The notes below the pieces were generated by a model. That model saw nothing but the letters and a program-made list of their open reading frames with translations. It made no database searches and had not been told where the DNA came from. A stretch of DNA of 42,693 bases from Ceraceosorus guamensis (Eukaryota > Basidiomycota > Exobasidiomycetes > Ceraceosorales > Ceraceosoraceae), in assembly GCF_003144195.1 (NCBI RefSeq), contig NW_020290115.1:1-42693 (forward strand), written 5' to 3'. Below are positions 12,640-14,529 of the stretch, one piece after another. The stretch's first letter is position 1; the number at the start of each line of letters is the position of its first letter. A program made the translations under genes and the position numbers.

Positions 12640-14529
12640 ATGGCAACGCAAAGCTCTCCCGCGGCACTTGCCGCGAACTTCCACATTGGCCAGAACTACA
12701 CCGTGGTGGATGTCATTGGGGAAGGAGCCTATGGGGTCGTCTGGTGAGTCAAGCTACCTTGTCAGAGCTCGTTGCTCGTCCTCGCTCACCGCTGATTACA
12801 TGCTGCAAACCTGCGTACACACGTCTCGCCTCCAGCTCTGCAATCCACAACCCATCTCAGACAAGAGTCGCTATCAAGAGGATCACTCCTTTCGATCATT
12901 CGATGTTTTGCTTGCGTACGCTCCGAGAGATCAAGCTGCTCCGGCATTTCAATCACGAGAACATCATCTCGATCCTAGACATGATCAGACCGGATGACTA
13001 CGAGCGCTTCCAGGAGGTGTACCTGATCCAAGTAAGTATCTTTTCGTGACGCTTTTGCCAAGCGGACACCAGTGCAGCTTGGCTTTCCGCTTGGGCGGAT
13101 CTTGTCAAATGCAGCGAAGACGAGCACCTTTTTCGCACTCTGTCCAAATGCTCATCTTCACGCCTGTCTGTGCAACAGGAACTCATGGAGACGGACATGC
13201 ATCGCGTGATTCGCACTCAAGAGCTCTCGGACGATCACTGCCAGTACTTCATCTATCAGACTTTGCGCGGTCTCAAAGCCCTGCACAGCGCACAGGTGCT
13301 GCATAGAGACTTGAAGCCGAGCAACTTGCTGCTCAATGCCAATTGCGATCTCAAGATCTGTGACTTTGGTCTTGCTAGGAGCGCGAACCAGCCCGAGGCG
13401 CAGGGCACTGGATTCATGACTGAATACGTGGCGACGCGTTGGTACAGAGCACCCGAGATTATGCTTACGTGAGTAGAGAGGAGTAACAGCGAACGAGGGC
13501 TCTTGCGCAGAGCAAATCTCAAACCGGAAACGGATCTGACTCACTCGTGCATCTGCGGGCGATCGGACAGCTTCAAGGAGTACACAAAGGCAATCGACAT
13601 CTGGTCTGTAGGGTGCATTCTTGCCGAAATGCTGTCGGGCAAGCCTCTCTTCCCTGGGCGTGACTGTGAGTTTCGCCAAGCATGGCGCAGGCCGCAAGCG
13701 CTTCTGCATGCTGACTGGCATCCCACTGCAATGTGCTTGTAGACCACCACCAGCTCTCCCTCACCCTCGAGATATTGGGCACGCCTTCTCTCGACGATTT
13801 CTACGCGATCACTTCCACTCGTTCCAGAGATTACATCCGGGCGTTGCCGTTTAGGAAAAGACGCGACTTTTCCAAGATGTTCCCTCAGGCAAACCCGCTG
13901 GCTGTGGACTTGTGAGTCTAGAAGGGAGAGGGTTGAAATTGTCTCAACGGTCTTAGCTCATCGCTCGTCCCTTGTCGTCTCCGTCTTGTTTGGCTGCAGG
14001 ATGGTGAGTACTTTCTGCAAGACAGCCGGGTGGGCTTGATCCTTGGCGCTTACATGAGCGTCCGCCGTTGTATCTAGGAAAAATGCTTGACTTTCTCGCC
14101 GAGAAAGAGAATCACAGTAGAGCAGGCATTGGCCCATGAATATCTCGCGCCATACCACGACCCAGGTGCGTGCCTTTGCATGATCTCGTACACATGCGGA
14201 GGACTGATGCGTCAAAATCCCTCCAGATGATGAGCCTGGAGCGGATCCTTTGCCCATGGAAAGCTTCAAATTTGATCTTGAGCCTGTGAGTTGGCCAAAT
14301 GGCTTCTTTGTCCCTTCGTGATCATGTTGTTGAAAAATTACACACTTCTGGCTGCGCCGATTGACCTACGTCCTCGAAGTCTCTTGCGACGAAAGACAAG
14401 TGAGTGGGCTCATTGACGCCGCTACCACCGTCCCAGTGGACCACTTGCTGATCTGCTGTGATTCTTTGCTCGGGCAGCTTGCGTGATGCTATATGGCACG
14501 AGGTCACCACCTTCGTAGCAAGGACTTGA
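12640..14529 (+). CDS. kpp2: Fus3/Kss1/Kpp2-type mitogen-activated protein kinase (TEY)
   Basis: Serine/threonine MAP kinase. Relatives relay pheromone, filamentation and appressorium signals (yeast Fus3/Kss1, Ustilago Kpp2/Ubc3). Ten exons: 12640-12743, 12836-13031, 13179-13468, 13571-13665, 13743-13911, 14000-14003, 14078-14165, 14227-14285, 14380-14399 and 14478-14529. The product is 358 aa, the usual length. Visible motifs: GEGAYGVV (27-34), VAIK with ATP-binding Lys49, FDHSMFCLRTLREIKLL, HRDLKPSN (142-149), DFGLAR (162-167), activation-loop TEY (181-183), ATRWYRAPE, and C-terminal LRDAIWHEV. Exon 6 is only 4 nt and is needed to keep frame into EKCLTFSPRKRIT. No long N-terminal extension is present, unlike the paralogue Kpp6, so the Kpp2 type is favoured. 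Orthology should be read as likely. Confidence 0.95.
14000..14003 (+). other. 4-nt micro-exon (GATG) in the MAP kinase gene
   Basis: Exon 5 ends with two bases of a Leu codon (TT) at 13911. The next coding sequence, EKCLTFSPRKRIT, begins in phase 0 at 14078. Joining them directly shifts frame and stops after a few codons. A GATG flanked by tggctgcag and GTGAGT supplies the missing base plus a Met codon, giving VDL-M-EKCLTF, in line with the family (VDLLEKLLTF). Upstream and downstream introns would be 88 and 74 nt. Confidence 0.85.
14380..14399 (+). other. 20-nt exon 9 of the MAP kinase gene
   Basis: Bounded by a cgaag acceptor (with attgac as a possible branch site about 15 nt upstream) and a GTGAGT donor. 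It encodes SLATKD plus two bases of Asn, bridging FDLEP to NLRDAIWHEV at the C-terminus. The acceptor is weaker than the others, so its 5' edge is less sure than its 3' edge. Confidence 0.75.

What the first reader, a model, noticed from the sequence alone, without database searches (positions are those of the whole stretch)
13743..14165. A 4-nt micro-exon is required in the MAP kinase gene
The sequence shows exon 5 ending in phase 2 and the next conserved coding block beginning in phase 0. Direct joining shifts the frame. GATG at 14000-14003 sits between a full acceptor (ctgcag) and a full GTGAGT donor, and restores both frame and family sequence (VDL-M-EKCLTF). Exons this short are rare in any eukaryote and difficult for gene finders, so automatic annotation probably truncates or mis-splices this signalling kinase. 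How the spliceosome defines so small an exon between 88- and 74-nt introns is an open question. One possibility is recursive or two-step removal of the 166-nt unit.
Basis: partly seen in the sequence, partly recalled or inferred. Interest (0 to 1): 0.72.

Follow-up and report, generated by a model that had tools for sequence, protein, structure and literature searches.

The report
Four-base exon in a fungal kinase gene
A gene for a fungal signalling enzyme carries a coding piece only four letters long, which must be stitched in exactly or the enzyme loses its tail; such tiny exons are already known in plants and fungi, so this is a clean new example rather than a new kind of thing.

Summary
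A Fus3/Kss1-type MAP kinase gene (10 exons, 12640-14529, 358 aa) lies in a 23.8-Mb genome that looks basidiomycete. Exon 5 ends in phase 2 (13911) and exon 7 starts in phase 0 (14078). GATG at 14000-14003, between ctgcag and GTGAGT, restores the frame and supplies the last base of Leu285 and all of Met286, a column ungapped in 6 of 6 other aligned MAPKs. Among 167 open GT-AG models of 1,516 tried, it gives the best protein. A spliced aligner recovers it with yeast Fus3 and with human ERK2 as queries. A close paralogue has no intron there. Skipping the exon, or retaining either flanking intron, leaves 285-297 residues. Most likely the exon is constitutive and spliced by intron definition, one intron after the other; this part is inferred. 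Exons of 1-6 nt are documented in fungi and plants, including a 4-nt one in rice (PMC8831610), so this is a new member of a known kind. No RNA evidence or fungal orthologue was available.

The parts
12640..14529 (+). Fus3/Kss1-type MAP kinase gene, ATG to TGA, 10 exons, 358 aa
12640..12743 (+). exon 1 (104 nt)
   Evidence: 3' end
12836..13031 (+). exon 2 (196 nt)
13179..13468 (+). exon 3 (290 nt): HRD, DFG and TEY motifs
13571..13665 (+). exon 4 (95 nt)
13743..13911 (+). exon 5 (169 nt), ends in phase 2 inside the Leu285 codon (TT|G)
13912..13999 (+). intron 5, 88 nt, GTGAGT...CTGCAG; candidate branch site CTCAT 39 nt from the 3' end
14000..14003 (+). exon 6, the 4-nt micro-exon GATG: third base of Leu285 and all of Met286
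14004..14077 (+). intron 6, 74 nt, GTGAGT...TCTAG; candidate branch sites CTTAC at 25 nt and TTGAT at 38 nt from the 3' end
14078..14165 (+). exon 7 (88 nt), starts in phase 0 (EKCLTFSPRKR...)
14227..14285 (+). exon 8 (59 nt)
14380..14399 (+). exon 9, a second small exon (20 nt), also frame-setting; encodes SLATKD and two bases of N
14478..14529 (+). exon 10 (52 nt) with stop TGA
   Evidence: 5' end

Best explanation
GATG at 14000-14003 is a real, constitutively included 4-nt coding exon of a working Fus3/Kss1-type MAP kinase gene. It completes the codon of Leu285 and encodes Met286, in the C-lobe helix just before the conserved P-x-x-R (the placing in a helix is recalled kinase anatomy). Each flanking intron (88 and 74 nt) is ordinary in length and has its own full donor, branch-site candidate and acceptor, so each can be recognised across the intron (intron definition) and the exon need not be 'seen' at all. 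The acceptor of intron 5 and the donor of intron 6 are 4 nt apart and are unlikely to be occupied at once, so the two introns should leave one after the other. I predict intron 6 leaves first, because the micro-exon's donor (ATG|GTGAGT) has a stronger computed U1 duplex than exon 5's donor (CTT|GTGAGT). Shown here: frame, splice-site sequences, fit to family and paralogues, consequence of mis-splicing. Inferred: inclusion in mRNA, constitutive use, order of removal.
For: Best protein of the 167 open models among 1,516 GT-AG models, and the only one that gives VDLMEK (an identical peptide would have tied at the top of the ranked list). Recovered by a protein-to-genome spliced aligner with Fus3 and with ERK2 as queries; the aligner called no internal exon under 13 nt in 30 control alignments (10 other kinase loci of the genome, 3 queries each). 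The aligned column is ungapped, and Leu, in 6 of 6 other MAPKs, 4 of them paralogues from this genome whose tblastn match runs through the position. Pfam Pkinase 223.8 bits with the exon, 215.8 with Met deleted, 201.7 with the exon skipped. The rest of the gene is intact: no internal stop, with K49, D144, D162 and T-E-Y 181-183 present. Skipping, or retaining either intron, leaves 285-297 residues. Both flanking introns lie within this gene's 61-147 nt range and have branch-site candidates; U1 duplex -8.7 kcal/mol for the micro-exon donor against -5.0 for exon 5 (U1 letters recalled). Precedent for consecutive removal around micro-exons, more often downstream-first: PMC8831610 and PMC4674806 (passages read).
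Against: No cDNA or RNA-seq was available, and three scans found no fungal orthologue, so conservation of the exon is untested. The aligner's splice scores were set by hand from recalled preferences, after I already knew the site. Met where all six aligned relatives have Leu is a mild departure. Counted as matches to CAG|GTAAGT, the donors of exon 5 and of the micro-exon tie at 6 of 9, so the predicted order rests on the duplex energy alone. With bare AG and GT dinucleotides, a family-compatible 4-nt insert occurs in 2.5% of random 166-nt stretches. The string CAGGATGGTGAGT occurs once more in 92.7 kb of sampled genome, both strands.
Confidence: 0.93

Rival explanations
1. A single in-frame intron 13904-14077 (donor GTGGAC) is used, giving a kinase that lacks V-D-L-M; no micro-exon is needed.
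For: It is the best of the 8 open one-intron GT-AG models and keeps all downstream sequence in frame.
Against: It removes four residues from a stretch that is ungapped in 6 of 6 aligned MAPKs; mean alignment score 138.8 against 164.2; the donor GTGGAC lacks the +4/+5 AG present in 8 of the 9 donors of this gene's model, and a GTGAGT lies 8 nt downstream.
Confidence: 0.02
2. The assembly has a small indel error, and the real gene has one 166-nt intron or none of this complexity.
For: Direct joining 13911-14078 fails only by frame; short indels are common assembly errors (general knowledge).
Against: A 1-nt error would restore the frame but still leave out the residue that is ungapped in the family; four bases would be needed. 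The intron independently holds an acceptor, fitting bases and a full GTGAGT donor, found in 0.08% of random 166-nt stretches (2.5% if any AG and GT are accepted). The rest of the gene model reads through without a stop. Raw reads were not available.
Confidence: 0.02
3. Inclusion is regulated: the exon is a switch between active kinase and a truncated or decayed transcript.
For: Its length is not a multiple of 3; skipping or intron retention leaves 285-297 residues. A glucose-dependent micro-exon switch is reported in Trichoderma (PMC11121469; abstract and passages seen).
Against: Nothing found in the sequence points to regulation; both donors are GTGAGT and the introns short, which favours constitutive splicing. 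A length that is not a multiple of 3 is what two in three random exons have.
Confidence: 0.08
4. Recursive splicing through a ratchet site removes the 166-nt unit, so that GATG is only a transient element.
For: Two splice sites lie 4 nt apart inside what would otherwise be one intron.
Against: A recursive exon reconstitutes a 5' splice site at the exon junction (PMC6224609, passages read); this exon starts GA. If GATG did not stay in the mRNA, the frame would break.
Confidence: 0.02

Closest known systems
4-nt micro-exon of rice LOC_Os02g54020 (PMC8831610, passages read)
   Same: Same length; missing from the annotation; leaving it out truncates the protein; from a survey of 2,398 plant micro-exons of 15 nt or less
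   Different: Plant gene; validated by RT-PCR; the passages read do not name its protein family
1-nt exon of Fusarium CYP621A genes (PMC12940212, passages read)
   Same: Fungal; found by the same argument (phase clash, conserved motif, intronless relative as length marker)
   Different: 1 nt, ascomycete P450, conserved in 20 orthologues and supported by SRA reads; neither test could be done here
Micro-exons of basidiomycete yeast bglA genes (PMC9142197, passages read)
   Same: Intron-rich basidiomycete genes with shortest exons of 5 bp (Sirobasidium magnum) and 6 bp (Rhodotorula minuta)
   Different: Defined by comparison with cDNA; different gene; shortest exon 5 bp
6-bp exon of Phanerochaete chrysosporium P450 genes (PMC1184071, passages read)
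   Same: Basidiomycete, very short coding exons between short introns
   Different: Different family; shortest exon 6 bp
1-nt exon of Arabidopsis APC11 (PMC4674806, passages read)
   Same: Frame-restoring ultra-short exon; intron definition with consecutive removal proposed
   Different: Tested with reporter constructs; plant
PsMAPK1 / EFP88010, Fus3/Kss1-type MAPK genes of rust fungi (PMC3136484, one passage read)
   Same: Basidiomycete with two Fus3/Kss1-type MAPK genes, one intron-rich and one without introns; here one has nine introns and one has a single intron in its aligned part
   Different: Six introns in the rust gene; the passage read mentions no micro-exon

Membership tests
Coding micro-exon (internal exon of 15 nt or less) | Flanked by complete spliceosomal introns with canonical sites on both sides | tested here: met
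   GTGAGT..CTGCAG (88 nt) and GTGAGT..TCTAG (74 nt), branch-site candidates in both
Coding micro-exon (internal exon of 15 nt or less) | Needed for reading frame and conserved protein sequence | tested here: met
Coding micro-exon (internal exon of 15 nt or less) | Junction reads or cDNA show inclusion | not testable with these tools
   no transcript data held
Coding micro-exon (internal exon of 15 nt or less) | Conserved in orthologues | tested here: inconclusive
   Three scans gave no fungal orthologue: 0 matches in viral contigs with the protein; with the alignment, 1 locus in bacterial/archaeal genome contigs at 36% identity and 34 viral-contig loci, 25-48% identity over the best segment. 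These collections are not fungal.
Fus3/Kss1-type MAP kinase | Protein kinase domain with K, HRD, DFG and T-E-Y activation motif | tested here: met
   Pkinase 3.2e-66; K49, D144, D162, T181-E182-Y183
Fus3/Kss1-type MAP kinase | Closest solved relative is Fus3 | tested here: met
   Best of 233 PDB sequences matched at E 1e-60 or better: FUS3 2b9f, E 3.7e-134, residues 14-351; ERK2 follows closely at 3.6e-131
Recursive splicing exon (RS-exon) | 5' splice site reconstituted at the very start of the exon | tested here: not met
   Exon starts GATG; the donor lies 4 nt inside

The most novel reading that the evidence does not exclude
In this lineage the MAP kinases are kept under splicing control by several frame-shifting ultra-short exons (4 and 20 nt here, 23 nt in the Slt2-like gene). 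Any drop in splicing fidelity would then silence the pathway, with strict intron-6-before-intron-5 order as the control point.
Probability: 0.06. Interest if true: 0.55.

Novelty: new member of a known kind. Interest (0 to 1): 0.27.

Why it matters
It is a clear case of an exon of a size that gene finders and read aligners are known to miss (PMC8831610, passages read), inside a core signalling kinase. A model without it would truncate this kinase just before its C-lobe helices or lose four conserved residues. It also offers a compact natural test of how a spliceosome working by intron definition handles two sites 4 nt apart. Because 1- to 6-nt exons are already documented in plants and fungi, the gain is a well-argued extra example and an annotation warning, not a new principle.

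Tried and rejected
Single-intron models, two-intron models with middle exons of 1-90 nt, and GC/AT donors: rejected on protein fit (only the best 12 of each ranking and the best 5 one-intron models were printed). A second 4-nt candidate, CCGG at 14026-14029 (VDFREK, donor GTGGGC), is the runner-up (157.8 against 164.2). It is ungapped too, and is rejected because its donor departs more from the gene's other donors, its downstream intron is only 48 nt (shortest in this gene otherwise 61) and it replaces L-M by F-R. Models with three introns were not tried.

Scans for relatives gave no fungal orthologue: the protein in viral contigs gave 0 matches; the 7-sequence alignment A1 gave 1 bacterial-assembly locus at 36% identity and 34 viral-contig loci. 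None was used further. NCBIfam listed 18 families, bacterial and archaeal models, all below their cut-offs.

Two scripts had slips and are superseded: reference peptides sliced wrongly; start codon taken in the wrong frame.

A genome-wide count of micro-exons was considered and dropped: pattern counts are dominated by ordinary donors (GATGGTGAGT 218 hits against 59 for the reversed pattern), and only a small part of the genome could be fetched.

Literature on fungal MAPK micro-exons: searches listed no paper whose title or printed abstract start reports one. Searches printed 15 of 166, 12 of 38 and 12 of 17 papers, and the library lacks most subscription journals, so this is not proof of absence.

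Full report
What is there. The window is contig C120 of a 23.8-Mb, 199-contig genome that looks like a basidiomycete fungus; this identification is an inference, no name is given. A search with the protein shows at least five MAPK-like genes: the window gene; a close paralogue at C53; a Hog1-like gene at C23 with a TGY motif; a Slt2-like gene at C111; and a second Slt2-like gene at C98. The labels are mine, from motifs and similarity, and the search scores only its best candidates. Two Fus3/Kss1-type genes, one intron-rich and one without introns, is the pattern described for rust fungi (PMC3136484, one passage read); Ustilago esculenta has no intron in either of its two (PMC6018589, one passage read).

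The gene. The two aligner runs start and end some codons short at the termini because they are local. The best solved relative is Fus3 (2b9f, E 3.7e-134), closely followed by ERK2. Invariant kinase residues and the T-E-Y motif are present.

The micro-exon. Exon 5 ends ...GTG GAC TT at 13911 and exon 7 starts GAA AAA TGC at 14078. Joining them directly gives VDLKNA-stop. GATG at 14000-14003 gives TTG ATG GAA: Leu285, Met286, Glu287. In the seven-protein alignment this column has no gap, and the other six proteins all have Leu. Four of those six are paralogues from this genome, and their tblastn matches run through the position without a break. The paralogue at C53 has one intron in its aligned part, elsewhere; it acts as an internal length marker, the same kind of argument that was used for the 1-nt exon of Fusarium CYP621A (PMC12940212, passages read).

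Alternatives. With donors at 13850-14060, acceptors at 13930-14140, introns of at least 30 nt and middle exons of 1-90 nt, 8 of 188 one-intron and 159 of 1,328 two-intron GT-AG models stay open. The GATG model scores best (164.2, mean over six relatives), ahead of another 4-nt exon at 14026-14029 (157.8) and the best one-intron model (138.8). Allowing GC and AT donors (24 of 408 and 1,030 of 9,246 open) does not change the top two. Pfam Pkinase scores 223.8 bits with the exon, 215.8 if Met286 is deleted and 201.7 if the exon is skipped.

Chance. Of 400,000 random 166-nt stretches from 92.7 kb of this genome (both strands, window included), 0.08% contain an acceptor-like YAG, four bases giving L plus M/L/I/F, and a GTRAGT donor; 0.26% contain any YAG-N4-GTRAGT; 0.83% contain YAG with 1, 4, 7 or 10 bases before GTRAGT. 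If any AG and any GT are accepted, the family-compatible case rises to 2.5%. The 13-letter string CAGGATGGTGAGT occurs once more in that sample, in L039; its context was not worked out.

Control for the aligner. On ten other kinase loci of the genome with three queries each (30 alignments), the smallest internal exon called was 13 nt (L016, 2 of 3 queries); pieces down to 10 nt appeared only as first or last exons, often across long gaps. So the aligner does not produce 4-nt exons freely. Its scoring was hand-set, after I already knew the site.

Mechanism. The four mis-splicing outcomes tested around this exon all truncate the protein: skipping leaves 288 residues, retention of intron 5 leaves 285, of intron 6 leaves 297, of both leaves 285. 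Both introns are of ordinary length for this gene (61-147 nt) with branch-site candidates. That fits intron definition, which is described as a default for short introns and as a route for exons too small for exon definition (PMC8378409, passages read). The acceptor of intron 5 and the donor of intron 6 are 4 nt apart, so simultaneous occupation is unlikely. For plant micro-exons the two introns are reported to be removed consecutively; of the 49 with reads of all three kinds, 32 had more reads for downstream-first (PMC8831610, passages read). Consecutive removal was also suggested for APC11, where a downstream-first order in a 9-nt potato exon is cited (PMC4674806, passages read). The computed U1 duplex of the micro-exon donor (-8.7 kcal/mol) is stronger than that of exon 5 (-5.0), although both match the consensus at 6 of 9 positions; on the duplex energy I predict that intron 6 leaves first. 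A classical recursive site is absent (exon starts GA). Constitutive inclusion and order are inferred, not shown.

A second small exon. Exon 9 (14380-14399, 20 nt) also sets the frame: skipping it gives ...FDLEPLA-stop after 337 residues. Its peptide SLATKD(N) aligns without a gap to Fus3 and to the C53 paralogue. The Slt2-like gene at C111 has a 23-nt exon that all three queries support (L029 1992-2014); skipping it shifts the frame. Short exons are thus not confined to one site in this genome, but no genome-wide rate was measured.

Place among known things. A 4-nt micro-exon validated by RT-PCR is described in rice (PMC8831610, passage read). Shortest exons of 5 and 6 bp occur in basidiomycete yeast bglA genes (PMC9142197, passages read), 6 bp in Phanerochaete P450 genes (PMC1184071, passages read) and 1 nt in Fusarium and Arabidopsis (PMC12940212, PMC4674806, passages read). 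In Chlamydomonas reinhardtii the protein kinase domain is among the top three motifs that micro-exons encode (PMC8831610). This is a new, well-supported member of a known kind. The main gaps are the lack of RNA data and of fungal orthologues.

Noticed in passing
window 14380-14399: Second small, frame-setting exon (20 nt) in the same MAPK gene; skipping it leaves 337 residues.
   Followed up: yes
L029 1992-2014 (G000:C111): 23-nt exon in the Slt2-like MAPK gene, CTTCCAAAACTACACTACAGCGA between cgcag and gtgagt, supported by three queries; skipping shifts the frame.
   Followed up: partly
G000:C53:109009-110145 (L010): Close Fus3/Kss1-type paralogue with a single 78-nt intron in its aligned part, against nine introns in the window gene.
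   Followed up: partly
window about 15816-16245: Downstream gene split over several exons with Acid_PPase (PF12689) matches in two frames; looks like a magnesium-dependent phosphatase of the MDP-1 type (the name is recalled).
   Followed up: partly
L039 7524 (G000:C1, fetched stretch): A second CAGGATGGTGAGT string, identical to the micro-exon and its nearest splice-site letters; not examined for gene context.
   Followed up: no
L016 (G000:C26): A possible 13-nt internal exon in a CDK-like kinase gene, called with 2 of 3 queries; low confidence.
   Followed up: no
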